Below, in pieces: positions 25,522 through 44,081 of a stretch of 44,081 nt of DNA. The notes under the pieces were generated by a model that did no database searches, was not told the DNA's origin, and saw only the letters and a program-made list of their open reading frames with translations. Positions within the stretch are counted from its first letter, which is position 1; each line of letters begins with the position of its first letter. The position numbers and the translations under genes were made by a program. This DNA is from an uncultured bacterium. Lineage in GTDB: Bacteria > Bacillota_I > Bacilli_A > RF39 > UBA660. The stretch is from assembly GCA_949291455.1 (NCBI GenBank), contig CASEVQ010000006.1, positions 1 through 44,081 of the forward strand. The letters are read 5' to 3'.

Positions 25522-25560
25522 TAAAGATATATTTTATTTATAATTCTATATAAGGATAAT

Positions 25561-26043: not shown

Positions 26044-26070
26044 AAGAGATTAGGAGGTTTTAAAATAATA

Positions 26071-26106: not shown

Positions 26107-26108
26107 AT

Positions 26109-26282
26109 ATGTTTAATATTAAAGAAACCTTTAAAAAAGATGATAATTCTACTATTAATGATTTGATAATTGGATATATAATGTGCGTTTTAGTAAAATC
26201 GTAGATTTGTTATACGGCTATATTAATGATAGACTGAATCTAGGCTTTAAATGTTATACAAAAGAAAGGAGAAAAAGCCGTG
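26109..26282 (+). pseudogene. small element gene interrupted by a frameshift
   Basis: ATG 26109 (GAGGTGA upstream) reads FNIKETFKKDDNSTINDLII and then stops at 26202-26204. A shifted frame through the same place continues with VRFSKIVDLLYGYINDRLNLGFKCYTKE and ends at about 26285 over the recombinase start. The joined product would be about 58 residues, in a position where small uncharacterised genes precede recombinases in Firmicute elements. A one-base frameshift near 26180 is the simplest reading; programmed frameshifting is not excluded. Confidence 0.5.
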
Positions 26283-27863: not shown

Positions 27864-27869
27864 TTCATA

Positions 27870-27892
27870 GAAGTTAGTTCTATACTAACTTC
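27870..27892 (+). repeat. hairpin 1 of the array
   Basis: GAAGTTAGT (27870-27878) pairs perfectly with ACTAACTTC (27884-27892), loop TCTAT. It is 6 nt after the recombinase stop but is not followed by a T-run, so a terminator role is doubtful. Confidence 0.8.
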
Positions 27893-27931
27893 ATACATTT
27901 AAAGGCGAGATAATGAAGTTTAGTTGCTAAT

Positions 27932-27960
27932 TAACTTTGTGGTAGAATGGCACAAAGTTA
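27932..27960 (+). repeat. hairpin 2 of the array
   Basis: TAACTTTGTG (27932-27941) and CACAAAGTTA (27951-27960) form a perfect 10-bp stem with a 9-nt loop. An alternative pairing of AAGTT (27917-27921) with AACTT (27933-27937) would compete with it. Confidence 0.85.
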
Positions 27961-28002
27961 GTAATATAAAAATTCAATTAACTATTTTTAGTAAATTTTA
28001 AA

Positions 28003-28029
28003 AAGTTCCCACCGACTTGGTGGGAAGTT
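28003..28029 (+). repeat. hairpin 3 of the array
   Basis: TTCCCACC (28006-28013) and GGTGGGAA (28019-28026) form a perfect 8-bp stem with a 5-nt loop. The right flank GT would pair with AC, but the left flank is AG, consistent with one change in an ACTTCCCACC arm. Confidence 0.85.
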
Positions 28030-28035
28030 TATAGT

Positions 28036-28075
28036 AAATATTAACTTGTGACCATGTTGGGTACAAGTAATATTT
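28036..28075 (+). repeat. hairpin 4 of the array
   Basis: Three stacked helices: AAATATT/AATATTT, ACTTGT/ACAAGT and ACC/GGT, 16 bp in all, interrupted by single-base bulges (A28043, G28050), with a 6-nt loop. Complementarity extends beyond the ACTT/AAGT ends into the spacers. Confidence 0.85.
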
Positions 28076-28147
28076 AAAAAAATAATAACTTAAATCTAAT
28101 TTGAAACAAAAATATAAAATTAAATTTTATTATACCTCTATTATAAA

Positions 28148-28172
28148 ACTTATGCACACAATGTGCATAAGT
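28148..28172 (+). repeat. hairpin 5 of the array
   Basis: ACTTATGCACA (28148-28158) and TGTGCATAAGT (28162-28172) form a perfect 11-bp stem with a 3-nt loop. Confidence 0.9.
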
Positions 28173-28182
28173 AAAAATATTA

Positions 28183-28235
28183 ACTTCCCGACAGGCTGTC
28201 GAGAAGTAGTTGATTTAATAACATGTACCAAGTTG
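28183..28235 (+). repeat. hairpin 6 of the array and a degenerate seventh unit
   Basis: ACTTC-C-CGACA and TGTCG-A-GAAGT (28183-28207) form a 10-bp stem with one C-A mismatch. Next, ACATGTACCAAGTTG (28221-28235) matches the 5' part of hairpin 4 but lacks its right arm, so it looks like an eroded unit. Confidence 0.75.
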
Positions 28236-28308
28236 TTAGTTCTATTATAAATAATTAAATTAAAAATCAGTGATATAATAGTAATTATCAATTTTAGGCG
28301 GTGATAAT

Positions 28309-29151
28309 ATGCAAATAAATATTAAAACTATTAATAGAGCTATTAATCGAAAATTTCATAGGCCATTGAAAGATGGATGTATTTATAATGTTTCAAAATT
28401 AAATAATGAAAGAAGAGCAAAGCATAACGAAACAATCAGTTTATTAAAACAAGCTCACGAAACATTAATAAATGTTGAATATAATCTAAATATATATAAT
28501 TTAGTTGATGCTAATACTTTGTTAAGATCTTCATTTGAATATGTAATGATGGCTATGATGATTCAATTTGATGAGAATGTCTATAATGAATTCACAACAC
28601 TTGGGATTGAACGTGATAAAACTAGAGTTTGTGAAATAATTGATAAATTTAGAACACACATGAATGAAATTTCTGAAACAGCTTTTAAAGATATAAATCG
28701 TAAAGAAAAACTATCTATGTTAACAGAATTATATGATAAATTATGTAATTTTACACATAGTACTTTAATAGTAAGTACTATGATAGAAATTAACAGTAAA
28801 AAAGAAAAAGAAATATTTCAATTACTAATGTATCAAAATTATTATTTTTTAAAAATGCTTTTATTTCTATGTTTGAAATATTTTACGAATGATAATAAGC
28901 ATTATTTAGAATTAAGAAATGTCGGCTTTACTTATTTATTTTTAATGTTTATTATTAATAATAAAATAAAAGATTATAAGTTGGATTTATCAAAGTATAA
29001 TGAATTATTATATTTTGATAAAAATACTAAATATTTCGAAAATGATAAAAAAAATATGGAAAAACTTAGTTTTGAATTAAATGAGCTAAAAGTAGCTATA
29101 GAAGAAAATAGAGATAGTTTTATAAAAGAGTTATTAGAATTTTTAAAATAA
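28309..29151 (+). CDS. helical protein behind the hairpin array (DUF5677/HEPN-like?)
   Basis: A 280-residue, almost wholly helical protein I cannot place firmly. The block DANTLLRSSFEYVMMAMMIQF (about residues 68-88) and the later LYDKLCNFTHSTLI (about 145-158) recall DUF5677 and related HEPN-like proteins, which keep an Arg-(S)-x-E and a His at similar places. A proper Rx4-6H ribonuclease motif is not obvious. GGCGGTGATA precedes the ATG, with TATAAT (28274-28279) as a likely -10. Its position between the hairpin array and other defence genes suggests a defence or toxin role (inference). Confidence 0.6.
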   Translation: MQINIKTINRAINRKFHRPLKDGCIYNVSKLNNERRAKHNETISLLKQAHETLINVEYNLNIYNLVDANTLLRSSFEYVMMAMMIQFDENVYNEFTTLGIERDKTRVCEIIDKFRTHMNEISETAFKDINRKEKLSMLTELYDKLCNFTHSTLIVSTMIEINSKKEKEIFQLLMYQNYYFLKMLLFLCLKYFTNDNKHYLELRNVGFTYLFLMFIINNKIKDYKLDLSKYNELLYFDKNTKYFENDKKNMEKLSFELNELKVAIEENRDSFIKELLEFLK

Positions 29152-29202
29152 ATTTATTATGGGTTAGTTTTATATAATAGTTTAAATAATTAAGTAAGTC
29201 AG

Positions 29203-29231
29203 TTGACATAAACTACCGTTTGCGGTATAAT
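29203..29231 (+). promoter_or_regulatory. consensus promoter with an inverted-repeat operator (Fic gene)
   Basis: A perfect TTGACA (29203-29208) and TATAAT (29226-29231) are spaced by 17 bp. The inverted repeat TACCG-TTTG-CGGTA (29214-29227) covers the spacer and the edge of the -10. A repressor bound here would block RNA polymerase; the HTH-carrying Fic protein downstream is the obvious candidate. Confidence 0.88.
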
Positions 29232-29250
29232 TGTAACAGAGGTGAAAATT

Positions 29251-30127
29251 ATGGAGTTTATGACTACAAAAGAAGCTGTTGAAAAATGGAATATTAGCGA
29301 AAGAAGAATTAGACAATTATTACAAGATGGTAGAATTGAAGGTGCTGTTAAAGTAGGTAATAGTTGGAATATTCCGATTGATGCTGATAAACCTGTTGAT
29401 AAAAGAATAATTAAACCAGATGATAATAAATTTATAATTGATTTAGATGATAATTATTTTGATGAAGTAGATAGCTTAAAAAAAGAATTAGATAGTAAAA
29501 GACCAATACCAAAAGAAACTTTGAAATCTTTAAAAGAGTCTATTAATTTAGAGTGGACTTATAATAGTAATGGAATTGAAGGAAATACTTTAACATTAAG
29601 AGAGACACAAGTTGTTTTAGAAGGTATTACGGTAGGTGGAAAGTCTATTAAAGAGCATTTAGAAGCAATTAATCATGAGAAAGCTATTTTATATTTAGAT
29701 GATTTAGTAAAAGATAAAAATCCAATAACTGAATGGAATATAAAAAATATTCACCAGTTAATTTTAAAAGATATAGATAATGAGAATGCTGGAAGATATA
29801 GAAAAGAAAACGTAACTATAAAAGGAGCTACTCATATTCCACCGGATTATTTAAAACTGCCTGAATTAATGGAAAAATTAATACTTAATTACAATACTTG
29901 TAACGAATATCATCCAATAATTAAAGCTGCATTATTGCATGGAGAATTGGTTAAAATACATCCATTTGTTGATGGTAATGGAAGAACATCAAGATTACTT
30001 ATGAATTTAGATTTAATGAATAGTGGCGTTAGATAAAGCACATACTACTGGTAATTACACTGACTTTGTTAAGTTAGTTACTAAGTTAGAAGTTGAAATG
30101 CTAAAAAAATATTTAGAATTATTGTAA
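29251..30127 (+). pseudogene. HTH-Fic AMP-transferase, truncated by deletion and frameshift
   Basis: ATG 29251 has GAGGTG upstream. An N-terminal MerR/excisionase-like HTH (about residues 1-45), a Fic_N region with the inhibitory motif SNGIEG (Ser106-Gly111, matching S/T-x-x-x-E-G/N) and the Fic core HPFVDGNGRTSR (about 237-248) are intact. The frame then stops at 30034-30036 (LMNSGVR). The proper C-terminal sequence continues in another frame from 30026 (ALDKAHTTGNYTDFVKLV) to a stop at 30127, so roughly 20 codons and the reading frame were lost. The missing part helps close the Fic fold, so activity is doubtful. Confidence 0.85.
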
Positions 30128-30139
30128 GAGGTATAGAAT

Positions 30140-31504
30140 ATGATTGAAGATAAACATAATGAGAAATGTCTATGTGCATTTTGTGGTAATAATAATTTTG
30201 AAATTCCAAATGATATTATTGATGCAATAAAAAGAGAAAATTTGATTATATTTGCTGGTGCTGGTATAAGTACTGAAGGAAAAAATGTATATAAAACAAC
30301 ATTATATACAGAAATAAATGATGAATTAGAAGAAAATTATGACAATACTTTCCCTCAATTGATGACAAAATATTGTAATCAACCAAATGGCAGAAGAAAG
30401 TTAATTAATAGAATAAACGAAAGGTTTGATTACTATAAAGCATTTCCAGAGGTAGATAATGTAATGAAAATGTTTTTTTCTCCATTATCTGATATTTATA
30501 GTATTAAGGATATAATAACTACAAATTGGGATAGACAATTTGAAGAAAAATGTAATTGTATACCAATTGTATATGATAAGGATGTTTCTCTTATAGATGA
30601 TAAAAAGAGAAAAGTATATAAAATCCATGGTAGCATAGATAATGTTGGAACTTTAATTATGACTGAAGATGATTATGAAAAATGTTATAGCGAATTGAAC
30701 AAAAATTTAATTGGTTCAAAATTAAAAGAATTGCTTAGTAGAAAAACAGTTGTGTTTATTGGATATTCTTTAGAAGATGATGATTTTAAAAAAATATGGG
30801 AGTTTATTGATGAAAAACTTGGTGAATTGAAGCCTCATTTTTATATTGTTTCACCAGATAAATCGATGAGAGAAAAACTGTCAGATAAAAATGTAACTAT
30901 AATAAATACATTAGGATCTAATTTTATAGAAAAAATTAGAAAACAGTTAATTGACGATAATTATTTATTAGATTCAGACATTCTTTATTCTATTGCAGCA
31001 GATCTTTATTATTTATGCCTTAAAGTGCATAGAGACACCAATAATTTAATTAAAGAAAAAAAAGAACCTCTATTAATATATTCAATATTATATCAAGATG
31101 GATTAATCCACTCATTAGAGAGAATTTTAGCTAGAAAAACATCAGGAGAATATTTAAATCCGAATTTTATATTTAATTCTATTAGCACTTATTCTGATAT
31201 GCTCAAAAAGTATTTAAAAAGTGGAAATGTTTTTGATGGGGCATATATAGCAGGATATATTCATGCTATGGATTATATATTTTATTTATATAATGTTATT
31301 TATAATAAAGAAGATATAGAAAATTGTGAAAAAATATATTTATACTATTTACCTCCTAAATGTGGATATAACAATTTAGAAGAATTTGAAAATGATTTAA
31401 AAACATATAAAACAAAAAAATATATTACTATTGCAAAAAAAATTATTAAAGATATGGGAAATGATAATTATGAACTAGAAATTCATCATCTTCCATTTTT
31501 GTAA
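30140..31504 (+). CDS. SIR2-family (sirtuin-fold) defence protein
   Basis: A 454-residue SIR2_2-type protein. Proteins of this type in defence systems degrade NAD+ on infection. NAD-binding features are visible: IIFAGAGIS (residues 36-44), TTNWD (127-131), KIHGS with His163, and VFIGYSLEDDDF (about 205-216). A CxCxxC cluster at residues 10-15 may bind zinc. The C-terminal 190 residues are helical and unassigned, possibly a sensor. AAGAGGT precedes the ATG. The stop lies 3 nt from the attP arm, so this is the last cargo gene at the right end. Confidence 0.88.
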   Translation: MIEDKHNEKCLCAFCGNNNFEIPNDIIDAIKRENLIIFAGAGISTEGKNVYKTTLYTEINDELEENYDNTFPQLMTKYCNQPNGRRKLINRINERFDYYKAFPEVDNVMKMFFSPLSDIYSIKDIITTNWDRQFEEKCNCIPIVYDKDVSLIDDKKRKVYKIHGSIDNVGTLIMTEDDYEKCYSELNKNLIGSKLKELLSRKTVVFIGYSLEDDDFKKIWEFIDEKLGELKPHFYIVSPDKSMREKLSDKNVTIINTLGSNFIEKIRKQLIDDNYLLDSDILYSIAADLYYLCLKVHRDTNNLIKEKKEPLLIYSILYQDGLIHSLERILARKTSGEYLNPNFIFNSISTYSDMLKKYLKSGNVFDGAYIAGYIHAMDYIFYLYNVIYNKEDIENCEKIYLYYLPPKCGYNNLEEFENDLKTYKTKKYITIAKKIIKDMGNDNYELEIHHLPFL

Positions 31505-31507
31505 AAA

Positions 31508-31540
31508 GTTACACAATGATCATCGCGAGGTGGCGAAGGT
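31508..31540 (+). repeat. attR: right arm of attP plus recombination core
   Basis: GTTACAC (31508-31514) faces the core GAGGTGGCGAAGGT (31527-31540), and native amidase sequence follows. Joined to the left end, the two 22-bp half-sites around a central GG (31529-31530) match at 16 of 22 positions as inverted repeats, including GTGTAAC, GCGA and TCA blocks. Confidence 0.88.
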
Positions 31541-32793: not shown

Positions 32794-32835
32794 AGGGAAT
32801 TAGTTCAGTTGGTAGAACGCAGGTCTCCAAAACCT
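32794..32835 (+). tRNA. tRNA-Trp, 5' part (split gene)
   Basis: This is the first 42 nt of a tRNA-Trp (anticodon CCA): acceptor strand AGGGAAT, D arm GTTC...GAAC, anticodon arm CAGGT-CTCCAAA-ACCT. The sequence then leaves the tRNA. The missing 34 nt are at 42103-42136; joined they give a 76-nt tRNA with a perfect acceptor stem and encoded CCA. Confidence 0.92.
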
Positions 32836-32973
32836 TTGTTGTTTGATGACTTAATGCCATTTAACCCTTGAATTTATTAGCATTTGTTAAAATTATAGTT
32901 ATTATTGTTGGCACCGTTGGTGGCAAAATGTTAAATTTATAACAAATTAAATCAATATAAAACGATATGAAAC
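32836..32973. other. left-end interior of the tRNA-Trp insertion
   Basis: No gene is seen between the left core and the promoter of the resident tRNA-Trp. It holds TTGTTGTTTG (32836-32845, repeated near the right end at 41942-41951) and an imperfect inverted repeat, TTGGCACC (32908-32915) with GGTGGCAA (32919-32926), part of the probable integrase-binding region. Confidence 0.55.
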
Positions 32974-33003
32974 TTGTTAAAAAGATGAGTTTTATGATAT
33001 AAT
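32974..33003 (+). promoter_or_regulatory. promoter of the resident tRNA-Trp
   Basis: TTGTTA (32974-32979) and TATAAT (32998-33003) with an 18-bp spacer lie 25 bp before the tRNA. A small palindrome GCTCTTAAAGAGC (33010-33022) lies between. Confidence 0.65.
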
Positions 33004-33028
33004 TATTTTGCTCTTAAAGAGCACCTAT

Positions 33029-33102
33029 AGGGGTGTAATTTAGTGGTAAAATTTTGGTCTCCAAAACCAACTTCGGGAGTTCGACTCTCTCCACCCCTGC
33101 CA
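33029..33102 (+). tRNA. trnW: tRNA-Trp (anticodon CCA), intact
   Basis: A complete 74-nt tRNA: acceptor AGGGGTG with CACCCCT, G73, encoded CCA, an anticodon arm TTGGT-CTCCAAA-ACCAA and T loop TTCGACT. It lies about 200 bp inside the left end of the insertion, so it travels with the element and can replace the split copy. Its D arm and acceptor differ clearly from the split tRNA-Trp, so it is not a recent duplicate. Confidence 0.96.
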
Positions 33103-33112
33103 GAGAATTATC

Positions 33113-33151
33113 CGATTTTTCCTTTGATTTATAAGGGAAAATCGTTTTTTT
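33113..33151 (+). terminator. terminator of the resident tRNA-Trp
   Basis: CGATTTTTCCTT (33113-33124) pairs with AAGGGAAAATCG (33133-33144), 12 bp with one T-G pair, followed by seven T's. The terminator after the split tRNA (42147-42184) is similar in sequence, so tRNA and terminator seem to have been acquired together from a related genome. Confidence 0.92.
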
Positions 33152-33262
33152 ATCTAAAAATTTTCTTTTGTTATTTTCTTATTTTTTGTAATCGTTTTGT
33201 TCTATAATATACTTGCTATGTATTAAGAAAAGAGTTAACATTCACATAGAGAGGATGGAATT

Positions 33263-33478
33263 ATGAAGGAAGTAACGATTGAAATTAATGAATACCAATT
33301 GGTAATTTATCATACGATAAGGGCTTTATATGAAGACTATGGCTCTGCTCTACCACCAAAAATTGAAAAAGAATTAGAAAATTTTGTTAATTTGTTAGGC
33401 AATTATTTAGAAGATGATGTTGAAGGAGATATAGAGGAACAAATTTTTTATAGAAAAACTATTTATAAATATGAATAA
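33263..33478 (+). CDS. small acidic protein
   Basis: A 71-residue protein, rich in Glu and Asp, without Cys or a membrane segment. GAGAGGATGGAATT precedes the ATG (AGAGG spacing about 10). No family is recognised. Helical prediction by eye (EYQLVIYHTIRALYEDYG, KIEKELENFVNLLGNYLEDD) suggests a compact helical protein. It is the first gene after the resident tRNA-Trp. Confidence 0.55.
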   Translation: MKEVTIEINEYQLVIYHTIRALYEDYGSALPPKIEKELENFVNLLGNYLEDDVEGDIEEQIFYRKTIYKYE

Positions 33479-33812
33479 ATGGGTGCTAAATGTGAATAAA
33501 TAGGTAATAAATATTATTATCTGCTTTTTTATGGTATAATATTTAAAGAATAAACTGATGAATAGTAATTTATAAGCAATCATGTGTATTTTTAAAAATT
33601 AATTATAAGAAAAATATAGTTCGATAAGTATGGGGTGGCTTGAAACTAGTTTATTTTCCCTTGTTTATCGTAAAGATAATGAACAACTGATAGAAAGATG
33701 AGTTTATACTACTAATTGTTAAAGAATTAAAGCGCAAAAGAAATTAATTTTATTTTTCGGTTATTATTCAAGACATTTGGAAGAAAAAAATAATAAGTGT
33801 GAGGGTATTGAT
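33479..33812 (+). other. long leader of the LuxR-type gene
   Basis: A possible -10 (TATAAT, 33535-33540) starts a transcript of about 265 nt before the ATG. CGATAA (33622-33627) pairs with TTATCG (33665-33670), with GGG/CCC possible inside, so a stem-loop may form. I do not recognise a known riboswitch. No gene is seen. Confidence 0.4.
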
Positions 33813-35216
33813 ATGATAGAAAAGTTAAAATCTAAATTTTCAAATTTTATTTGTTGTGTTTGTTTTTCTTCTTGCTTTTATGCGTTTATGTTGATTGAAT
33901 CATTTGTAAATGAACGTAGTGTTGAAATTATGGGTTGTAATATTGTAAATATGGTATATACATTAGGTCTTGTTTTTACAGGATTAGGCTTTTTATCCTT
34001 TTCATTTTTATGTAAAATTTATAAATCAGAAAAATTAAAAAAAATAATAATGCTTATTAATTGCCCACTAAGCCTTTTAGTAAATATTATATTAGCATTG
34101 TCTAACCAACCTATTGTTTTTTTAACAAGTTCAATATTAGCACTATTATTAATGGGTCACATAAGTTCATATGTATATTATATAATGGCAATAAATTTTA
34201 AAGATAGCAAATATACAGGAAGAGTAATTGGTATAGGAATGGGTATAGCAATTATTTTACAATATATTGTTCAAAATTTAATGCCACAATCAATTATATT
34301 TATAATAAGTATATTATTAAGTATTATATGTATTATATGCTATATACTTATAAATTCAAAAGATATAAACAATAAAAATGCAACTACAAATTTATTTAAT
34401 ATAAAAAACAATGATAAAATGATTAAAGCATTAATAATTGCAGTTATTTTAATGAGTCTTGTTGCGGGAATGATTGATAGTGTATTGACAACATTTAATG
34501 CTACAAAAGAATATGACATATATAATGGAGTAAGATTATTTTATGCATTAGGCTTAATTATTGCTGGATTTATTGCAGATACAAAAAGTAGAATATATTT
34601 ACCACTTGCAACACTTTGTGCAATATTACTATCATCAATTTGCATATTTTTCTTATCTGAAGAAATTAGTTATTTTGCGGGGACAGCATTAATGTATTTA
34701 TATAGTGGTTTTTATGTGATATTTTTTACTATAATGTTTCTTGATTTTGCTCCGAACAGTAAATGCCCTGAGTTATGGGCAAGTATGGGACGAATTATTC
34801 GTAGTTTTACAGTTGCAGCAACAATAATACCAGCGATAAAAATATATAATGTTGTAGGAAATATTGCATTAGCTACAATAAGTTGCTTACTATCAATTTT
34901 AATTATGCTTGTATTATTACCATTTATTAGTAAAACAGTTAATTATTCTAAACAAATAAATAAGCAATTTAACAAATTAGAAATGATACCACAAGAGAGG
35001 TTAAAATTATATGCTGAACATTGTTTACTTACACCTCGTGAAACAGAAGTATTAGAAAAACTACTTATGACTGATGATGATTTACAAGGAATTGCTGAAA
35101 GTTTATATATATCAAGAAGAATGGTTCAACGATATGTTACTTCGATTTATGAAAAAACCGACACTAAAACACGTCATGGATTATTTCAAAGTTACATTAA
35201 TTTTACGATAAATTAA
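33813..35216 (+). CDS. 12-helix membrane protein with C-terminal LuxR-type HTH
   Basis: A 467-residue regulator with about 12 membrane helices in an MFS-like arrangement (about residues 5-385), then a cytoplasmic LuxR/GerE HTH at 406-467 (LTPRETEVLEKLL, DDLQGIAESLYISRRMVQRYVTSIYEKTDTKTR). It would sense a ligand or envelope state in the membrane and bind DNA directly. This architecture is known mainly from Actinobacteria such as Eggerthella, so it is unusual beside low-GC core genes. ATG 33813 is chosen because GAGGGT lies at 33801-33806; the longer TTG start has none. A terminator separates it from the TPR operon, its probable target. Confidence 0.88.
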   Translation: MIEKLKSKFSNFICCVCFSSCFYAFMLIESFVNERSVEIMGCNIVNMVYTLGLVFTGLGFLSFSFLCKIYKSEKLKKIIMLINCPLSLLVNIILALSNQPIVFLTSSILALLLMGHISSYVYYIMAINFKDSKYTGRVIGIGMGIAIILQYIVQNLMPQSIIFIISILLSIICIICYILINSKDINNKNATTNLFNIKNNDKMIKALIIAVILMSLVAGMIDSVLTTFNATKEYDIYNGVRLFYALGLIIAGFIADTKSRIYLPLATLCAILLSSICIFFLSEEISYFAGTALMYLYSGFYVIFFTIMFLDFAPNSKCPELWASMGRIIRSFTVAATIIPAIKIYNVVGNIALATISCLLSILIMLVLLPFISKTVNYSKQINKQFNKLEMIPQERLKLYAEHCLLTPRETEVLEKLLMTDDDLQGIAESLYISRRMVQRYVTSIYEKTDTKTRHGLFQSYINFTIN

Positions 35217-35225
35217 TTTTAAAAG

Positions 35226-35251
35226 ATGATAAAAATGTTATCATTTTTTTA
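35226..35251 (+). terminator. terminator after the LuxR-type gene
   Basis: ATGATAA (35226-35232) and TTATCAT (35238-35244) with a 5-nt loop are followed by seven T's. Confidence 0.85.
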
Positions 35252-35370
35252 TATAAAATAATTATTCTAGAAACTTTTTTATCATTTAATTAAAAATTGG
35301 CACACATACGAACTATACAAGCACTATTTTTTTTAATATAATTTACTAAAAAGCAAAAGGAGGAGCACAC

Positions 35371-37842
35371 ATGAAAAAGCTTCTTTCGTTTTTCAACTAC
35401 AAGGGAGGGTTATGGTTATATATATCCTTATTTGGATTAACAGTATGTCCCACTATAATTTCAGCACTTGTAGTAATTATTAAAGGATCACTTTTAGGTG
35501 AAATAGGAATTTTCTTTACACAATTACTAGGTTTATTAATTGGTTGGATACTTTTTAGTATTGCATTAGGATTTTCTTTAAATAAAGATTATACTTATAA
35601 AAAAGGATTACAACAATTACCAAAGCAATTATTAAATGGAGTTTTACCAATACTTGCAATTTATATAATGATTGAATGGTTATTTACAATGTCTTTATCA
35701 CAAATGCCGTTGTCGGTATATATATTTGTATCATTTATTGAAACATTATTATTTATACCAGTTATCTATCGACTTGCTCTTTCTTCGAAATTAAATGAAG
35801 AAGACTTATTTTTAAAAGACTCAGCAATGTCATTTTTAATACACCATATAAAATTAAGTTTAATATCAATCATTTGTTATTTTATATCAAAACAAGTCGG
35901 TGCATTATTATCCAATTGGTTATTTAACATGGAAATATTTATTCCCTTATCTAGACAGTTTATAATAAATATATTTATTGTTGCTATACAATGGTTAATA
36001 TTACTTCCGGTTTTTAAATTAGCAATAAAAGAAATTGCTGAACCAACAGATAAATTAAAAAGAAAAGTTAAAAAGGAAAAAACTAAACATAATCTTATTA
36101 AAAATCAAAAAGATAAGGAATACAAAAACCAAGACTTTAAAGAAAAACGTATTAAACCAGGATTAGTAGTAGATTCAATATATTTTGTTATTTTCGTTGG
36201 ATTTATGATTACTTGCATTTACAATATTCACACTAATCCTAAAAATATAGATGGCTCAAATAGAGGATATTTAGCAATATCTTCAATAGATGATTGTATA
36301 GCAATTGGTGATGAGGCATTTGCTAACAATGATTATATAACTGCTTCAATATATTATGATTATGCTAAAACACTTGTTGCTGCATGGCAAGGATATCTTT
36401 ATGATGAAAATCTTTTACATGAAACATTAAATACCAATGAAACCGATGCGGAAATAATTTTGCTTTCGGCATTAGCAACAGATAATCCAGAAGGCTATAT
36501 AAAACATTTTATTAATAAAGAAGTTGATACAGATTATTTACTTGAAGCTTTAATTTCATTTGAAGGCGTTAAAGATAAACGCAAAGCGTTACATCAATTA
36601 GTAAGTCGTGGTATACTTCAAAAACGTTTTGTATTTCCAAATACTTTGAGTGAAAAAGAAATTGCTGATTTAGAAAAAGCAATAACTATAGCGGATCGTT
36701 TAGTAGAAAGACGTAGTATAGTTGAAGCATATTATTATTTATTACGAGAAGGAAATACTAGTACAAAAGCAGTTCAAATAGCATGTGATCTTGCCAATAA
36801 ATATCCTGATGATTTTTATTTACAAACCTATGCAACTGAGATTATGTGGTACACTACTGAAGCAGGTGGAAATTATATAGATGAAGATATATTAAATAGA
36901 TTTGCTCAAATGATTACACAAAATACTACTGAAGAGGAAACCGATAAGATTTTGGCTGTAAAATTATTTATTTCAAGAATATATATGAATACTTCGAAAA
37001 GTAAAAAAGCCCTTGAATTTTTTGATAGTTTTTTCCCTGAAGTTACCAACTTTGAAGCAGATATGATTAAAATATCTTTACTACACAATGACAGACAATA
37101 TGATAAAGCATTAGACTTTGCTCAAGAATATGCTAAAAAAAATCCTGATGATGTGGCAAACAACAGTTATCTTGCAATTGGAATGTTACCTCGTGATGCT
37201 GATGTAGCAATTGAAAGTGCTTTAAGATTAGCAAACACAATTAAAACATCTAAAGATGCAGAAGAAATTGCAGAAGCTGATGCAGGAATTGGAGTATTTC
37301 TTGAATATATATTTGGTTATTACAATGCTCCAAATTCTCAATTTTGTGGATACAAAGAATTTTATTCATCGAAATTTAGTGAAGAGCAAAAACAAAAATT
37401 ACAAGATGATTTGATAATTGGTACATATCTTAAATTTAGAGCATCTAAAGATTATAATGAAGGTATTCAAATGATAAGTGAAATCATTGATAAATATAAA
37501 AATGTTCCATATGCTCTTTATGAAAGAGGGTATTATGAAAATAAATTATCTCAATATTCTGAAGCATTAGATGATTTAAAGAAAAGTTTAGAATTAGATC
37601 CTTTAAATGCTTTTGCATACATAGAACTTGCTGAAGCATATGAAGGAGTAGGAGATTATACTAGTTCATTAAAAGCAATTGAAAAAATGGATTTAGTACT
37701 TGATGAATTAAATTATTCACCTACGATAAATGAACGGGGAATTGCTGTATATATAAGTGTATTTTTAAATAACACCAAACATGCTATGTATGAAGAACGC
37801 ACGGATTCTCTTTTGAACAATAATGATCAAGGAGGTAAGTGA
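35371..37842 (+). CDS. membrane protein with large TPR region
   Basis: An 823-residue protein. The first 215 residues hold about five membrane helices. A charged linker (about 225-260) and another helix (about 268-287) follow. The rest is a long tetratricopeptide-like helical repeat region, clearest at 700-790 (PYALYERGYYENKLSQYSEALDDLKKSLELDPLNAFAYIELAEAYEGVGDYTSSLKAIEK). The TPR part would lie on the outer face if helix counts are right, presenting a binding surface. AAGGAGG precedes the ATG. Its stop is directly ahead of the next TPR gene. Function unknown. Confidence 0.8.
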   Translation: MKKLLSFFNYKGGLWLYISLFGLTVCPTIISALVVIIKGSLLGEIGIFFTQLLGLLIGWILFSIALGFSLNKDYTYKKGLQQLPKQLLNGVLPILAIYIMIEWLFTMSLSQMPLSVYIFVSFIETLLFIPVIYRLALSSKLNEEDLFLKDSAMSFLIHHIKLSLISIICYFISKQVGALLSNWLFNMEIFIPLSRQFIINIFIVAIQWLILLPVFKLAIKEIAEPTDKLKRKVKKEKTKHNLIKNQKDKEYKNQDFKEKRIKPGLVVDSIYFVIFVGFMITCIYNIHTNPKNIDGSNRGYLAISSIDDCIAIGDEAFANNDYITASIYYDYAKTLVAAWQGYLYDENLLHETLNTNETDAEIILLSALATDNPEGYIKHFINKEVDTDYLLEALISFEGVKDKRKALHQLVSRGILQKRFVFPNTLSEKEIADLEKAITIADRLVERRSIVEAYYYLLREGNTSTKAVQIACDLANKYPDDFYLQTYATEIMWYTTEAGGNYIDEDILNRFAQMITQNTTEEETDKILAVKLFISRIYMNTSKSKKALEFFDSFFPEVTNFEADMIKISLLHNDRQYDKALDFAQEYAKKNPDDVANNSYLAIGMLPRDADVAIESALRLANTIKTSKDAEEIAEADAGIGVFLEYIFGYYNAPNSQFCGYKEFYSSKFSEEQKQKLQDDLIIGTYLKFRASKDYNEGIQMISEIIDKYKNVPYALYERGYYENKLSQYSEALDDLKKSLELDPLNAFAYIELAEAYEGVGDYTSSLKAIEKMDLVLDELNYSPTINERGIAVYISVFLNNTKHAMYEERTDSLLNNNDQGGK

Positions 37843-37843
37843 C

Positions 37844-38704
37844 ATGATAAAAAAAATAATTATAATTATTACGGCAATAAATTTTATATTTATATTAATA
37901 AATGGTTTTACATTATTTGAAGTTATAGGATTATTACTATTGGTAACATCATTTATAGGAATACAATTTTTTGTAAAAGGTTTTAATGGAAAAATGCCTC
38001 AATTTTGTTTAGGTGCATCTATAATAGCTTTGTTACTTTGTACTATTTTGGGAAACACATCAACATTAGTATTTAGTGATGCGGTAGATATAGACCAAGA
38101 AATATTAGAAGAATATTATGAAAAAAATCGTATTCCAGATGTTAAAACAATTGCTCAAATAGAAAATCTTATTGAAAATGAAAAATATGATGAAGCAAAA
38201 AATATTATAAATAAGTTACCATATTGTAATGAAAAAATAAAATTACAAGGAAAACTATTACTTGCTCAAGATGATAATTACAACGCCGCAAATATGCTAT
38301 CTCAAATAAAAAATAAAGACAAAGAAAGTTATGAAATGTTATTAAGAGCGAGATTATTTCAATACAAAGGTAAAGTAAATAATACGATTTGTGATATTGC
38401 CCAAGATGCAGCATATGATTATCCATTTGAACCATATTTTATGTATATGGCTGGTTACACATGTTATGAAACAGACAAATACATTCAAGCGGCATATTAT
38501 TTAGGAAAGACTTTGGAGATGGAACCAGATAATCCATATGCTAATTACTATTATGCTTTAACTGCTTATGTATTAGGTGATACTAATCAAAGTTTAGAAT
38601 ATCTTGATTATGCTTTAAAATGTGCCAAAAATGAAGGCGGCTATGAAGAACTTATTGACTCCATTTCAGAGTATAAAACTCTAATTAAGGAGGGTAAAGA
38701 ATGA
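37844..38704 (+). CDS. small membrane TPR protein
   Basis: A 286-residue protein from ATG 37844, chosen because AAGGAGG lies at 37829-37835; an earlier ATG at 37823 would include that site as coding sequence. Three membrane helices (about residues 3-85) precede a TPR-like domain (about 95-280: YAANMLSQIKNKDKESY, IQAAYYLGKTLEMEPDNPYANYYYALTAYVLGDTNQSLEYLDYALKCA). The start directly follows the stop of the larger TPR gene and the end overlaps the next gene by 4 nt, so the three are co-translated. It looks like a smaller relative of the 823-residue protein. Confidence 0.82.
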   Translation: MIKKIIIIITAINFIFILINGFTLFEVIGLLLLVTSFIGIQFFVKGFNGKMPQFCLGASIIALLLCTILGNTSTLVFSDAVDIDQEILEEYYEKNRIPDVKTIAQIENLIENEKYDEAKNIINKLPYCNEKIKLQGKLLLAQDDNYNAANMLSQIKNKDKESYEMLLRARLFQYKGKVNNTICDIAQDAAYDYPFEPYFMYMAGYTCYETDKYIQAAYYLGKTLEMEPDNPYANYYYALTAYVLGDTNQSLEYLDYALKCAKNEGGYEELIDSISEYKTLIKEGKE

Positions 38705-40311
38705 AAAATAAACTATTAAGAAAAAAAATAAGTTGTCTATTAGTTATTATTGCATCATTTAGTACTTTTTTCTTTTCAATAGCAAACGCCAATGCCCAAA
38801 CTTTAGGTAGTGCTCATAGAGATTTTGTAAATTCAACTAATTCAAATGTTGATGGACATACCGCATCTAGTCAATGGCGAGTTCATGATCGAGCTAACAC
38901 AGGAAATTTTGCAGAAGATTTAAAACAAGAATGGCAAAATTTATGTGATTCATTTAATTTTAAACCACGTGATAATTCTACATCTACTAATAATATGAAA
39001 CCAGTTGATGCAGTTAAACCATTTATTCAAAACAAAATAAAAGATGAAATTAAAAATACAAATTTAAATGATATAACAGATGCTATTAAAAATTTTGGTA
39101 GAAATTCTGATAGTCTAAAGGATGCAAGAGAAAATATAAGCCACGGTAATGAAATTAACTATAATAATCTAGTGGATAAGGCAAACAAATATATTAATAC
39201 AACAGAAAATATAGCTACCTTTACCAATTCAGAACACACTCATTCGTTTATGAGATGGACACATTATACTTTAAAAGGAATGGGACTTGGAACATCAAAT
39301 ATAAAACAAGCAAGTGCCGCGGATGCAGCAGTAAGTAATATGCTAGAACTTATGGGTAATGATGTATTTACCAATTATATGAATACTCACACCAATAAAC
39401 CTCTAGATCTTTTAGATGGAATAACAGAATATAGTGATAATATAGCTTATAAGATGATGTCAAACACATTTACACCGCAAGATATTGTAGGCCCCGACAA
39501 AGATGGAAGTCATGGAGCTTTAACGAGACCATTACCAACTATAAATGAACAAAACAATAAATTTTTACGAGAATTAAATATTATTAAAAAATTATCACAA
39601 GATATTTTTGATTACTTTACAAAAAATTTTATTAAAGATCTTAGTAAATTAGTTAACAAGTCATGGGATAGTTTATGGAAAAAGTTTTCTGATTTATTTA
39701 AAGCAGATACAAAAAAGAAAACCGGACCTGGTGATGCAAGAACACTTCCAGTTTTAGAAACGGCAATTAAACCAAATATTTATTTATATCCAATTGAAGA
39801 AGAAGAGATAATTGTTCGATTTAAAAATCCAGAATTGCTTGAAACTGTCATACCGGAATACAAAGATTTTTGGCATGCAACAGCAAAACCAAATGGAAAT
39901 CTTTTAATAGATGGAAAAAAATATGGATATTTATTCTATGAATCAGACACTTCAACATTACATATGCAAAAAGAAGAAGGTTGGATTATAAAACCAGAAA
40001 CAAAAAAAGAACAATTAACTGAAATTGCAACAAAATATAAATTTAACGAGCAAGAAACAAAAGACTTTGTTACCTTCTGGTGTACAAAGCTTGAAAATAA
40101 TGTATCATATGTTATGTATCCACAGCATACAGCAACAATAGATGCACTAATGCCTATGGAAATTACCCCAATACCTAATACCATTTTCCGAGTATGGTTC
40201 TTATTTGCTCCGGTATCTAGTGATTTAGGCACTTTTAAAGATCCAATAATTAGTCCGATAGAACGAAGTGGATTTACAGTAACAGAATGGGGTGGAATAG
40301 TTATGGATTAA
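38701..40311 (+). CDS. secreted protein with C-terminal KPNIYLYP-type domain
   Basis: A 536-residue secreted protein. An N-terminal signal peptide (about residues 1-32, basic start, ISCLLVIIASFSTFFFSIANA, ANA-Q cleavage) is followed by a helical, Asn/Asp-rich middle part (about 35-350) with a possible coil. The C-terminal domain (about 355-536) opens with AIKPNIYLYPIEEEEIIVRF and contains HATAKPNGNLLIDGKKYGYLFYES, FCTKLEN-like FWCTKLENNVSYVMYP and FTVTEWGGIVMD. This pattern recurs in surface and lipoprotein-like proteins of Firmicutes and Actinobacteria; its role is not known. It overlaps the TPR gene by 4 nt (ATGA). Confidence 0.8.
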   Translation: MKNKLLRKKISCLLVIIASFSTFFFSIANANAQTLGSAHRDFVNSTNSNVDGHTASSQWRVHDRANTGNFAEDLKQEWQNLCDSFNFKPRDNSTSTNNMKPVDAVKPFIQNKIKDEIKNTNLNDITDAIKNFGRNSDSLKDARENISHGNEINYNNLVDKANKYINTTENIATFTNSEHTHSFMRWTHYTLKGMGLGTSNIKQASAADAAVSNMLELMGNDVFTNYMNTHTNKPLDLLDGITEYSDNIAYKMMSNTFTPQDIVGPDKDGSHGALTRPLPTINEQNNKFLRELNIIKKLSQDIFDYFTKNFIKDLSKLVNKSWDSLWKKFSDLFKADTKKKTGPGDARTLPVLETAIKPNIYLYPIEEEEIIVRFKNPELLETVIPEYKDFWHATAKPNGNLLIDGKKYGYLFYESDTSTLHMQKEEGWIIKPETKKEQLTEIATKYKFNEQETKDFVTFWCTKLENNVSYVMYPQHTATIDALMPMEITPIPNTIFRVWFLFAPVSSDLGTFKDPIISPIERSGFTVTEWGGIVMD

Positions 40312-40400
40312 AAAATTAATATATAAATATATAATAGAGAATAACAAAAATGCTAATTAATAAATATCAAAAAAACAATTTAAAAGAGAGGAGATATATT

Positions 40401-41216
40401 ATGAAAAAAATAATGATTTTAACTCTAATGCTAGTAATGATGTTTTCGCTTACTGCATGTGGTAATAAAGAAAATCAAAACAATAATACAAATAATAATG
40501 AACAAAAAACAGTTACAGATTTAGGATTTAAAGATGCTAAAGCAATACAAAATTTTGTAGATAATTTTAACGATAAATATCCTGGATATTATGCATACAT
40601 GGTAGAAAGTGATGCGAACACTTTAGAAGGAACTACTTTTAGTAGTCAAGGATATTCAGTTTATCGTATATTAATATGGAGCGATAGAAATGCAGAAAAT
40701 AACAAAGATAGTCTAGGAGACTATAATGGAAATAGTCATTTTAATAACTTAAATATAAGACTTATATACAATCCTTCAGGACAATTAGTTTTGCTTAAAA
40801 CATTGTACTTAGTTAGCAATAGTGTGTCTTATTTTAAGAATGATGATCAAGCAACTTATGATGCTATGATGGCTGTTTTAAATGAACTTTTTTCAAAAAA
40901 TACTGAAGAACAAAATCAAAAAATTTATGAAAATTTAAGATTACCTAAAGTTGAGGCTATTGATAGTTTTGAACTTAAAAGTGACTATGTAAGCAAAGTT
41001 GATTTAGTGGAAGACTTTATGACGCATTGTGGATATAAAGTTGGAGATTCAGTAAGCACAATATTAGAATATGACTTTAATGGTGAAAATTATCGTTTAA
41101 TAGTAAATCCTCTTGGTTCATATTCAAATAGTGAATATGTTATCAATTGGGATATAGCTTTTGCAACACCTGATGACTTTTTAGCATATGAAGCGGCATT
41201 AACTATGCCATCTTAA
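40401..41216 (+). CDS. surface lipoprotein
   Basis: A 271-residue lipoprotein. ATG 40401 is chosen because GAGGAG lies at 40388-40393; the frame is also open from 40350. The signal peptide ends in the lipobox LTAC (Cys about residue 20) followed by an Asn/Lys/Gln linker. The mature part has repeats of aromatic residues (PGYYAYMVESD, GYSVYRILIWSD, LRLIYNPSG-like) that suggest beta structure, and two similar halves may exist. It is the last gene of the TPR/secreted-protein unit. Function unknown. Confidence 0.78.
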   Translation: MKKIMILTLMLVMMFSLTACGNKENQNNNTNNNEQKTVTDLGFKDAKAIQNFVDNFNDKYPGYYAYMVESDANTLEGTTFSSQGYSVYRILIWSDRNAENNKDSLGDYNGNSHFNNLNIRLIYNPSGQLVLLKTLYLVSNSVSYFKNDDQATYDAMMAVLNELFSKNTEEQNQKIYENLRLPKVEAIDSFELKSDYVSKVDLVEDFMTHCGYKVGDSVSTILEYDFNGENYRLIVNPLGSYSNSEYVINWDIAFATPDDFLAYEAALTMPS

Positions 41217-41480
41217 AATTAAAATATTAGTAGTTATACAAAAAGAAAAAATTTGGTATTTATTAAAATAAAATAAAGTGGCAGTTATGAAATTAAATGA
41301 TTAATTTAGTAATTGCCTTCTTTTACTGCATTAAATAAAAATATAATGACAAAAACTTATTATTAATACATAATAAAAAAAATCTAAAAATACAGTCAAT
41401 AAGTTTTTTATAATAATTCAAAATTATTAATTTATATAAATGTAATTATGTCAAAATGTATAATAATGTGAAAAAATAAA
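41217..41480. other. AT-rich gap after the lipoprotein gene
   Basis: No gene or strong hairpin is seen. The GC content is very low and stop codons are frequent in all frames. Confidence 0.5.
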
Positions 41481-41838
41481 TGATTATATGGAAACAATGA
41501 TGGCAGTTGAGGATAATAAATCAGATATACTGAATTTGTTCAATTATAACTGAAATTAATATAACATCAACGGATAATATTTATTATAATTTAGATAAAT
41601 TTATGGGAGAGCAGTTGATTCTTCATATTTATCAAGTGCAGTTGGCATAGTTAGAAATTATATGTTTGAAAAAGATCCTAATTTAAAAGATATTGCATCG
41701 TTAATAAATTCACTACCTGATAAAAATATCGAAACTTTCATTAAAATGTTAAATGATTTATCTAATGGAAATTTCTATGATATTTCTAAAATAGAAGATA
41801 TAGAACAATATGATAATTCAACACAATTTAAAAATTAA
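41481..41838 (+). pseudogene. decayed gene fragment
   Basis: Two coherent stretches in different frames: NITSTDNIYYNLDKFMGEQL (about 41561-41620) and, after a frame change, DSSYLSSAVGIVRNYMFEKD...LKDIASLINSLPDKNIETFIKML ending at TAA 41836-41838. An earlier piece, MAVEDNKSDILNLFNYN, ends at a stop near 41553. The pieces read as one degraded gene with a frameshift and a stop. The family is not recognised. Confidence 0.5.
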
Positions 41839-41870
41839 TTTGTTAATAGTTGTTGTATAAAAAAATATGA

Positions 41871-41951
41871 TATAATATTTATACCAAGTCAAATATTGGG
41901 CATTGGGGTTCTTAATTGTGGCATAATAGTCCAAAAGACCATTGTTGTTTG
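41871..41951 (+). other. decayed tRNA-Trp-like or att-like segment
   Basis: TATAAT (41871-41876) is followed 28 nt later by a segment that resembles a tRNA-Trp 5' half (GGGGTT..., TTAATTGTGGCATAA near a D arm) and then TCCAAAAGACC-ATTGTTGTTTG (41930-41951), which echoes TCCAAAACC-TTTGTTGTTTG at the left junction. It does not fold into a full tRNA. It may be the scar of an earlier integration at tRNA-Trp. Confidence 0.4.
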
Positions 41952-41964
41952 TTTGAGAGTGGTC

Positions 41965-42049
41965 TGGTGGCAATTATGGTGGCAAACCAATCCAATAAGC
42001 CCAAGTAAAATGATTTATTTATGTGTTTGTTATAAGTCGTTTTACTTGG
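41965..42049. repeat. right-end arm-type repeats and inverted repeat
   Basis: TGGTGGCAA occurs at 41965-41973 and 41977-41985 (12-bp period), matching 32918-32926 at the other end. CCAAGTAAAATGA (42001-42013) and TCGTTTTACTTGG (42037-42049) form an inverted repeat with one T-G pair and a 23-nt loop. Both fit an attachment-site region. Confidence 0.65.
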
Positions 42050-42090
42050 ATTTATGGGGGTTCAAGGTGTTTGGATGTGATTTAATAATT

Positions 42091-42136
42091 TCTCCAAAAC
42101 CTGATGTCGTGAGTTCAAGTCTTACATTCCCTGCCA
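42091..42136 (+). tRNA. tRNA-Trp, 3' part (split gene)
   Basis: Core TCTCCAAAACCT (42091-42102), then the remaining tRNA: variable region, T stem GTGAG-TTCAAGT-CTTAC, acceptor strand ATTCCCT (pairs perfectly with AGGGAAT at 32794-32800), G73 and CCA to 42136. It has no D arm of its own and cannot fold alone. Confidence 0.92.
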
Positions 42137-42295: not shown

Positions 42296-42316
42296 TGTAA
42301 TAATGAGGTGAGCAAA

Positions 42317-42856
42317 ATTGTCAATCAAGAAACCTTAAATACATTTGATAAATTATATTACGATACATATCAAGATGTTTTAAAGCATATTGTAATCAAC
42401 ACTTCTAATATTGATGATGTAAAAGATATTATTCAAAACGTTTATTTAGATGTTTTAAAAAAATTAGGTAATAAAAATATTAAATTAAATAAATCTTATA
42501 TAATAGGAATTGCTAAGAATAAAATAAAAGATTATTATCGTTTTAATTACAAAGTTAAGATAACATCATTGTTTTCTGGTATTAGAGACAGTAAAGACAT
42601 TAATTTAGTTGATACACTTGATGCTAATATAGATATAGAAAAGATAATAATTGAAAAACAAGATATAAATTTTATTTGGAGATATTTAAAAAAACAAAAA
42701 GCAGTCATAGCAAAAATTTTTTTCTTATATTATTATATGGATTACAATATAAAAGACATTTCTTTAGAACTTCATATTAATGAATCAAATGTAAAAAATT
42801 ATTTATATAGAACATTAAACAAGCTTAATTCTTTAATGAAAGGTAAAGGTGAGTAA
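42317..42856 (+). CDS. ECF-family RNA polymerase sigma factor
   Basis: A protein of about 180 residues with sigma-70 regions 2 and 4: YYDTYQDVLKHIVINTSNIDDVKDIIQNVYLDVL (region 2), then KAVIAKIFFLYYYMDYNIKDISLELHINESNVKNYLYRTLNKL (region 4 HTH). Start choice is unusual. GAGGTG (42305-42310) points to ATT 42317 at ideal spacing. An in-frame GTG at 42308 lies within that ribosome-binding site and almost at the predicted transcription start. No ATG, GTG or TTG occurs just downstream. The gene pairs with the anti-sigma gene that starts 1 nt after its stop. Confidence 0.85.
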   Translation: MVNQETLNTFDKLYYDTYQDVLKHIVINTSNIDDVKDIIQNVYLDVLKKLGNKNIKLNKSYIIGIAKNKIKDYYRFNYKVKITSLFSGIRDSKDINLVDTLDANIDIEKIIIEKQDINFIWRYLKKQKAVIAKIFFLYYYMDYNIKDISLELHINESNVKNYLYRTLNKLNSLMKGKGE

Positions 42857-42857
42857 A

Positions 42858-43535
42858 ATGTCTAATAAACAAATAATGAAAGATGTATTTGATAATGAAT
42901 TTAATGCGAATAAAATAAGAAATCAAATACTTTTAAAAAGTGAAAAGAAGACTAAAAAAAATATGATTAAGTTTTTACAGTATGCTACTTTTTTGTTTGT
43001 AATAGCAATCGTTGGTATTACCATATTTATAAATAACCAACAAGCCAATTATATATATTCTGACGTTACTTCAAATATAATTATAAATAAAATTAATGAG
43101 TTTGATTTAACTAAACTTGATGCTGATATAAAATTTGAAGAAATAAATAGTGTTAATTTGCCATGGAATGATATGTTCAATAATATTAATATTCCTAAAG
43201 ATTTGGATAAATTTTATGGATATGGTGTTTATACTAAAAATGATTCTAACAATGAATATAATATTTTAGATTCTTATGTATATGAATATTTTAATTTGGA
43301 TAATAATAGAAAAATTAAAATAACATTTTCTAATACAAATAAATCTATTAGAGATTATTTTTTTGATATTGATGATGTTAAAGAATCTAATATAAATGAT
43401 AACAAGTTAATCGTTTATCAAAGTGAAGATATTTATTTTACAGAGTTTAAATATAATGAATATTATTTTGATATTGAAAATCATGAAATTACTACTGATG
43501 AGTTAATATTTATTTTGAAGTCTATCATTAAATAA
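42858..43535 (+). CDS. probable membrane-bound anti-sigma factor
   Basis: A 225-residue protein from ATG 42858 (AAAGGTGAG upstream; GTG 42849 is in frame but inside that site). About 40 cytoplasmic residues precede one membrane helix (about 38-57, FLQYATFLFVIAIVGITIFI), and an outer domain of about 165 residues follows, rich in Asn, Asp, Tyr and Phe. This single-pass layout next to an ECF sigma gene is the usual anti-sigma arrangement: the N-terminus binds the sigma factor and the outside domain senses stress. No zinc anti-sigma (HxxxCxxC) motif is present, and the outer domain is not recognised. Confidence 0.75.
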   Translation: MSNKQIMKDVFDNEFNANKIRNQILLKSEKKTKKNMIKFLQYATFLFVIAIVGITIFINNQQANYIYSDVTSNIIINKINEFDLTKLDADIKFEEINSVNLPWNDMFNNINIPKDLDKFYGYGVYTKNDSNNEYNILDSYVYEYFNLDNNRKIKITFSNTNKSIRDYFFDIDDVKESNINDNKLIVYQSEDIYFTEFKYNEYYFDIENHEITTDELIFILKSIIK

Positions 43536-43587: not shown

Positions 43588-44010
43588 TTATCTTTTTTTT
43601 AATTTTACATTATTTTTAAATTTTTTTAGGTCTTCTACTCCACATTTTTCCTCTCCACTATAAAATGTTGGAATAATAAGGCTATTACTATCATATGAAA
43701 AATCATAACCTAATCTATTTAATAATATATTCATAAAAAGTTTAGCTGTTCTAGAGTTCCCATCGTAAAATGGTTGATACATAATTAAATTAGCAACAGT
43801 ATTTAGGAGCAAAAGCAGCATTTCTTCTGTATATTCACTATTATCTAAATTATTTAATTTGTCAAAAAAAAGTTTTAGCATATCATCATAAAATTTTAAT
43901 TTTTCATCACAGAATTCACGAATATTAAAATTTGTAGAATTTGGTATAAAAATATTATTTATTTCAGTTAATGTTGCAAAATATGGATATTTATTATGTA
44001 ATATATTCAA
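43588..44010 (-). CDS. Fic-like protein with altered catalytic motif
   Basis: A 140-residue protein with a short Fic-like core. The motif reads QPFYDGNSRTAKLFMNILL (about residues 76-94): the catalytic His of HPFxDGNGR is Gln and the second Gly is Ser, while Arg is kept. Helical context fits (NTVANLIMYQPFYDGNSR; LLNRLGYDF). TTG 44010 is chosen as start because GGTGAT is at 44020-44015 with 4-nt spacing; GTG 44019 would be within it. The loss of the catalytic His argues against AMP transfer, so it may be inactive or have another role. Confidence 0.7.
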   Translation of the reverse strand: MNILHNKYPYFATLTEINNIFIPNSTNFNIREFCDEKLKFYDDMLKLFFDKLNNLDNSEYTEEMLLLLLNTVANLIMYQPFYDGNSRTAKLFMNILLNRLGYDFSYDSNSLIIPTFYSGEEKCGVEDLKKFKNNVKLKKR

Positions 44011-44081
44011 AATTATCACCTACAGATTAAGATAATAAATTATATTATAATAAGAATTTAAAATATGCAACAAATAATGCT

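What the first reader, a model, noticed from the sequence alone, without database searches (positions are those of the whole stretch)
32794..42136. tRNA-Trp split by an insertion that brings its own tRNA-Trp
The 5' piece (32794-32835) and 3' piece (42103-42136) join to a perfect tRNA-Trp, with TCTCCAAAACCT at both junctions. Elements in tRNA genes usually rebuild the gene; here the tRNA stays broken, because sequence after the left core is not tRNA-like. The element carries a distinct intact tRNA-Trp with promoter and terminator 200 bp inside its left end. If this is the only tRNA-Trp in the genome, loss of the element without precise repair would be lethal, giving the element an addictive hold.
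Basis: partly seen in the sequence, partly recalled or inferred. Interest (0 to 1): 0.78.

Follow-up and report, generated by a model that had tools for sequence, protein, structure and literature searches.

The report
Mobile element swaps essential tryptophan tRNA
A decayed conjugative element has cut this bacterium's tryptophan tRNA gene in two and supplies a complete substitute of its own, the only tryptophan tRNA found in the assembly; the trick is known from some bacterial viruses but, as far as I could find, had not been reported for conjugative elements.

Summary
Host tRNA-Trp halves (32794-32835, 42103-42136) join to a perfect tRNA; the anticodon-loop core TCTCCAAAACCT stands at both junctions. 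Same-genus genome G009 has the uninterrupted site (75 of 76 bases identical, matching flanks). The 9.27-kb insert carries a different intact tRNA-Trp (33029-33102) with promoter and terminator, the only tRNA-Trp in the 88%-complete assembly.

The insert is the wreck of an integrative conjugative element: its ends match a complete 35.5-kb element in G208 (tyrosine integrase, VirB4, VirD4, MobL relaxase), and it keeps a truncated integrase relic. Eleven genomes show the same layout. In eight tested, the element's copy is the only tRNA-Trp. Complete, integrase-less and half-lost copies form a graded series.

Mechanism: recombination in the anticodon loop destroys the host gene. The element tRNA's 3' half could not rebuild it (5 of 12 stem pairs would break here), so a whole tRNA is carried. 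This is the logic of phage 'tRNA-dependent lysogeny' (Guerrero-Bustamante and Hatfull 2024), here in conjugative elements, for which I found no earlier report. The addictive hold is plausible but unproven. New variant of a known kind.

The parts
32794..32835 (+). 5' half of the host tRNA-Trp gene, ending with the core TCTCCAAAACCT (32824-32835); left junction (attL)
   Evidence: Joins with the 3' half to a complete tRNA-Trp; identical to the intact host gene of G009 over this half
42091..42136 (+). core copy (42091-42102) and 3' half of the host tRNA-Trp gene (to 42136); right junction (attR)
   Evidence: one mismatch to the intact gene of G009
32836..42090 (+). inserted element, remnant of an integrative conjugative element
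   Evidence: Absent at the empty site in G009; both ends match the G208 ICE and the G101 element
33029..33102 (+). element-borne intact tRNA-Trp(CCA), only tRNA-Trp found in the assembly
   Evidence: ARAGORN and Rfam; genome-wide search; identical copy in the G101, L112, L113 and L116 elements
32974..33003 (+). promoter-like site upstream of the element tRNA (TTGTTA, 18 nt, TATAAT)
   Evidence: Consensus scan, 10 of 12 matches; not tested
33113..33144 (+). terminator-like hairpin followed by a T run, after the element tRNA
   Evidence: Consensus scan; not tested
32919..32925 (+). left arm-type repeat GGTGGCA
   Evidence: Only three copies in the 44-kb window, all near the two ends; same arrangement in G208
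41966..41984 (+). right arm-type repeats GGTGGCA (41966-41972 and 41978-41984), 12 bp apart
   Evidence: same spacing in G208
41470..41811 (+). truncated, frame-broken relic of the C-terminal part of the element's tyrosine integrase gene
   Evidence: tblastn of the G208 integrase, residues 407-536, E 5.6e-15; reading frames
33777..35216 (+). cargo gene: membrane protein (MFS-like) with a C-terminal LuxR-type DNA-binding domain
   Evidence: GerE above its cut-off, MFS_1 just below
35371..37842 (+). cargo gene: large membrane protein with TPR repeats
   Evidence: Pfam TPR matches
37823..38704 (+). cargo gene: membrane protein with TPR repeats
   Evidence: Pfam TPR matches
38701..40311 (+). cargo gene: putative secreted protein, no family match
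   Evidence: No Pfam or NCBIfam match
40350..41216 (+). cargo gene: putative lipoprotein
   Evidence: Only lipoprotein-signal matches below the curated cut-offs

Best explanation
The insert is the remnant of an integrative conjugative element (ICE). Its tyrosine integrase recombined a roughly 9-12 bp core in the anticodon loop of the host's single tRNA-Trp gene. The element's attP holds only that core and not the 3' half of a tRNA, so integration destroys the host gene. A complete tRNA-Trp with its own promoter and terminator, 193 bp from attL, takes over. Shown: split gene, empty site in a relative, intact element tRNA as the only copy in eight carriers, complete ICEs of the same family, integrase relic in the window. 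Inferred: that the element tRNA is expressed and charged; that a whole tRNA is carried because host alleles differ too much for hybrid repair; that after loss of the integrase the host is locked to the element's tRNA.
For: Exact halves and core. Empty sites: G009 for the window and G326 for G101. Same layout in G101, G105, G158, G192, G208, G211, G304, L112, L113 and L116. Complete ICEs: G208 with integrase, VirB4, VirD4 and MobL and G304 with integrase and T4SS homologues between exact host halves. One tRNA-Trp in each of eight carriers, and it is the element's. Integrase relic. All stem pairs kept with compensatory changes in an alignment that includes four element tRNAs. A hybrid of host 5' half and element 3' half breaks 5 of 12 acceptor and anticodon stem pairs in this host.
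Against: The window genome is 87.7% complete, so a second tRNA-Trp could lie in the missing part. G143 carries an element and two further tRNA-Trp genes, and G035 has an intact copy outside the split layout, so dependence is not universal. Hybrid repair would be less damaging in G101 and G208 than in the window. No expression or charging data.
Confidence: 0.86

Rival explanations
1. The host keeps another tRNA-Trp in the part of the genome missing from the assembly, and the element's tRNA is a dispensable extra, for example a counter to tRNA-cleaving defence.
For: The assembly is incomplete. G143 has two host copies besides the element's.
Against: Eight carriers, 86-96% complete, each show only the element's copy, and relatives without the element almost always show a single tRNA-Trp match.
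Confidence: 0.1
2. The split is an assembly artefact (chimera at the short shared core).
For: Short repeated core; draft metagenome-type assemblies; several carrier contigs end just inside the element.
Against: Both host flanks are contiguous in G009. The same element end sits in different host alleles in separate genomes. G208, G304 and G101 each show both junctions on one contig.
Confidence: 0.02
3. The two halves are expressed and joined at RNA level (split or intron-bearing tRNA), so the host gene is not broken.
For: Both halves are undecayed and would form a perfect tRNA.
Against: 9.27 kb with protein genes and a terminator-like site lies between them. In G105 and G158 the 3' half is gone and in G211 the 5' half is decayed, so the halves are not kept there. 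Trans-spliced tRNA halves are known from some archaea (PMC3218864), not, to my knowledge, from bacteria.
Confidence: 0.01

Closest known systems
Phage tRNA-dependent lysogeny (mycobacteriophage Fionnbharth and others; Guerrero-Bustamante and Hatfull 2024, PMC10865867)
   Same: Tyrosine integrase; core of about 10 bp at the anticodon loop of an essential host tRNA gene; no functional tRNA rebuilt at the junctions; element encodes a whole tRNA of the same isotype that must complement the loss
   Different: Carrier is a conjugative element, not a phage; host class Bacilli; isotype Trp; tRNA lies about 200 bp from attL; includes decayed remnants that still hold the only tRNA-Trp. Dependence was tested by deletion there, not here
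Rhizobium podophage vTRX32-1 group (PMC8631192)
   Same: 12-bp core inside the host tRNA-Leu; the phage carries a whole tRNA-Leu presumed to replace it
   Different: Phage; its tRNA lacks the core motif, whereas the element tRNA here contains TCTCCAAAACC
Genomic islands in tRNA genes as catalogued by Islander (PMC4383910), anticodon-centred subsite
   Same: Tyrosine integrase, anticodon-centred crossover, tRNA fragments marking the ends of the element
   Different: Islander's islands carry a tRNA fragment that rebuilds the target; these do not
Cis-mobilizable elements (CIMEs), ICE remnants bounded by att sites without integrase or conjugation genes (own knowledge)
   Same: The window element has both att ends, an integrase relic and no conjugation genes
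   Different: It carries the cell's apparently only tRNA-Trp; mobilization in trans not tested

Membership tests
tRNA-dependent integration (as in phage tRNA-dependent lysogeny) | short core shared with an attB inside a host tRNA gene | tested here: met
   9-12 bp core in the anticodon loop of tRNA-Trp in all carriers
tRNA-dependent integration (as in phage tRNA-dependent lysogeny) | no functional tRNA rebuilt at attL or attR | tested here: met
   Sequence after the left core is not tRNA-like; same in the relatives
tRNA-dependent integration (as in phage tRNA-dependent lysogeny) | element encodes a whole tRNA of the disrupted isotype | tested here: met
   33029-33102 and the copies in ten other carriers
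tRNA-dependent integration (as in phage tRNA-dependent lysogeny) | disrupted tRNA is single-copy in the host | tested here: met
   One tRNA-Trp, the element's, in eight of eight such carriers tested; G143 and G035 are exceptions in other layouts
tRNA-dependent integration (as in phage tRNA-dependent lysogeny) | element tRNA required for survival of cells with the integrated element | not testable with these tools
   Needs a deletion or depletion experiment
tRNA-dependent integration (as in phage tRNA-dependent lysogeny) | the element is a temperate phage | tested here: not met
   G208 carries a relaxase, coupling protein and VirB4; no relative of the integrase found in viral contigs. Hence 'works like', not 'is', lysogeny
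Integrative conjugative element (element family) | integrase, relaxase, coupling protein and T4SS ATPase between att sites | tested here: met
   G208: Phage_integrase, MobL, T4SS-DNA_transf, TraG P-loop above cut-offs; G304: integrase with VirD4 and VirB4 homologues
Integrative conjugative element (the window's own copy) | integrase, relaxase, coupling protein and T4SS ATPase between att sites | tested here: not met
   Only an integrase relic; no other ICE protein matched
Classical tRNA-gene genomic island | attP carries a tRNA fragment that restores the target | tested here: not met
Integrative conjugative element (element family) | excision and transfer between cells | not testable with these tools
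   Sequence only; the same element end in different hosts is indirect support

The most novel reading that the evidence does not exclude
Conjugative elements repeatedly and permanently replace the single essential tRNA-Trp gene of these bacteria: insertion splits it, the element's captured tRNA takes over, the element decays and one host half is lost (G105, G158) or decays (G211). Repeated takeovers would help explain the diverse tRNA-Trp types in this family, and carrying a whole tRNA would let one element cross hosts whose tRNA-Trp alleles are incompatible with hybrid repair.
Probability: 0.45. Interest if true: 0.72.

Novelty: new variant of a known kind. Interest (0 to 1): 0.55.

Why it matters
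It extends a phage mechanism to conjugative elements and to another bacterial class, and shows natural end states in which a cell's apparently only tRNA for one amino acid lies on a mobile-element remnant. It offers a testable reason for carrying whole tRNAs: only a 9-12 bp anticodon-loop core must match, so host alleles with incompatible acceptor stems become usable targets. It also shows a route by which an essential tRNA gene could be exchanged between lineages.

Tried and rejected
The plasmid search with the left end gave only short tRNA-region matches. A viral-contig scan with the element tRNA found nothing, and one with the integrase found no relative. In phages the integrase has only distant relatives, under 60% identity. 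Several core repeats first noted as candidate pairs (G154, G014, G015, G153) proved to have no tRNA halves and were dropped. G032 and G033, first read as 5' halves, are intact tRNA-Trp genes. G378 has an element-like tRNA-Trp without a split host gene; left unexplained. Host XerCD as the integrating enzyme was considered and set aside because the related complete elements carry their own integrase. A covariation count on the seven-element alignment A2 failed on a structure string; the count was made on A1, which holds four element tRNAs and 14 others.

Full report
What is there. The window (contig 6 of a 1.09-Mb, 87.7%-complete assembly) holds a tRNA-Trp gene cut in the anticodon loop. Bases 32794-32835 and 42103-42136 join to a 76-nt tRNA-Trp with its stems paired, and TCTCCAAAACCT stands at both junctions. 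From core to core the insert measures 9,267 bp. A different, intact 74-nt tRNA-Trp sits at 33029-33102, with a promoter-like site and a terminator-like hairpin.

It is a real insertion. In G009, of the same genus, the host tRNA-Trp is uninterrupted (75 of 76 bases identical) and flanked by the same sequences: 93-95% identity on the left, 78-84% on the right, including the Fic-type gene at 43588-44019. Near-identical left ends (94-99%) are found in other genomes, but in host tRNA-Trp genes of different sequence: G101, G315 and L112. G326, in the same genus as G101, has exactly the joined form of G101's two halves.

What the element is. Both of its ends match a 35.5-kb element in G208, which splits that host's tRNA-Trp at C11:63851 and C11:28304. 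That element encodes a tyrosine integrase next to attR, a VirB4/TraG-type ATPase, a VirD4 coupling protein, a MobL relaxase, TrbL, ArdC, a sortase and an N6/N4 methylase: a complete integrative conjugative element with its own tRNA-Trp about 200 bp inside attL. G304 has a second one on one contig, about 44 kb between exact host halves, with the integrase at the tRNA end. The left contig of G192 carries homologues of the G208 methylase, surface protein, TrbL and VirB4 in the same order. The window element keeps the ends, the arm-site pattern (GGTGGCA once on the left and twice, 12 bp apart, on the right; only these three in 44 kb) and a truncated integrase relic at 41470-41811 (E 5.6e-15). No other protein of the G208 set tested matched, and the genome has no close relative of this integrase. 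It is a wreck that cannot move by itself.

How general it is. A split tRNA-Trp with the element's own tRNA-Trp on the same contig was found in G000, G101, G105, G158, G192, G208, G211, G304, L112, L113 and L116. In G315 the contig ends inside the element. Right halves next to integrases, intact or broken, were also found in G035, G798 and G772. At the threshold used, the integrase was seen only in this bacterial family in samples of 395 genomes of the class and 385 of the order. The public records that could be named are titled 'uncultured Bacilli bacterium'.

Is it the only tRNA-Trp? A covariance model of tRNA-Trp separates Trp hits (85 bits or more) from the rest (71 or less; those inspected were Gly, Cys and other isotypes). 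In all eight carriers tested that have an element tRNA on the split contig there is exactly one, the element's. G143 is an exception, with two host copies besides the element's, whose contig ends at the core. G035 has one intact copy outside the split layout.

Why a whole tRNA. The usual way is to carry the 3' half so that the gene is rebuilt (Islander, PMC4383910). Host alleles here differ so much that hybrids would suffer: the G000 5' half with the element tRNA's 3' half loses 3 of 7 acceptor pairs and 2 of 5 anticodon-stem pairs; the G315 5' half loses 2 acceptor pairs; in G101 and G208 the damage is smaller. A complete tRNA needs only the 9-12 bp core in the target. That this is the reason is my inference. 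The element tRNAs look functional: in an alignment of 18 tRNA-Trp, four of them element-borne, every stem cell pairs and 15 of 21 pairs show changes on both sides. The G105 element's tRNA is identical over its full length to the tRNA-Trp of G033, which stands in the usual locus with different flanks, and the window's differs by one base from that of G229. This suggests capture from hosts in the same family.

Graded series. Empty sites (G009, G326); complete elements with both host halves exact (G208, G304); elements without integrase but with both halves (window; G101 with 1.4 kb); remnants with the 3' half gone although genes seen downstream of the empty site in G009 follow on the contig (G105, G158, with the window as positive control); a decayed 5' half (G211). 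In the last three, excision could no longer restore the host gene, so the element tRNA appears to have replaced it for good.

Known or new. The mechanism is that of phage tRNA-dependent lysogeny, shown by deletion in mycobacteriophages (PMC10865867), and it is presumed in a Rhizobium podophage (PMC8631192). Searches of the open-access library found no report for conjugative elements; most subscription papers are not covered. A Sinorhizobium study remarks that phage-borne tRNA genes can substitute for host ones (PMC11476347). I therefore call it a new variant of a known kind.

Limits. The genomes examined are drafts and many carrier contigs end at the element. Expression, charging and essentiality are not tested. 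The addictive hold follows from single copy and essentiality but remains inference; in the window the element itself is immobile, so the lock is on the host.

Noticed in passing
window 14208-31520: A second, separate island splits an amidase-LysM gene (Amidase_3 part at 13922-14251, rest after 31500) with GAGGTGGCGAAGGT at both junctions; it carries a large serine recombinase (26280-27863), type I restriction genes, a SIR2-like and a Fic-like gene.
   Followed up: partly
window 42308-43535: An ECF sigma factor gene and the gene after it stand between the tRNA 3' half and the Fic-type gene in the window but are absent at the G009 empty site.
   Followed up: no
L181:18342 (G304:C39, minus strand): A second tRNA-Trp-like 5' half with a disordered 3' part lies about 1.5 kb beyond the right end of the G304 element, perhaps a relic of an earlier insertion.
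   Followed up: no
L120:4167-4240 and L120:16256-16329 (G378): Two different intact tRNA-Trp genes 12 kb apart on one strand, one resembling the G192/G143 element tRNA but without a split host gene beside it.
   Followed up: partly
L021-L030 and others, family-wide: One 74-nt tRNA-Trp sequence is identical across many genera while its flanks differ; in many genomes the gene sits beside a cell-wall hydrolase gene.
   Followed up: partly
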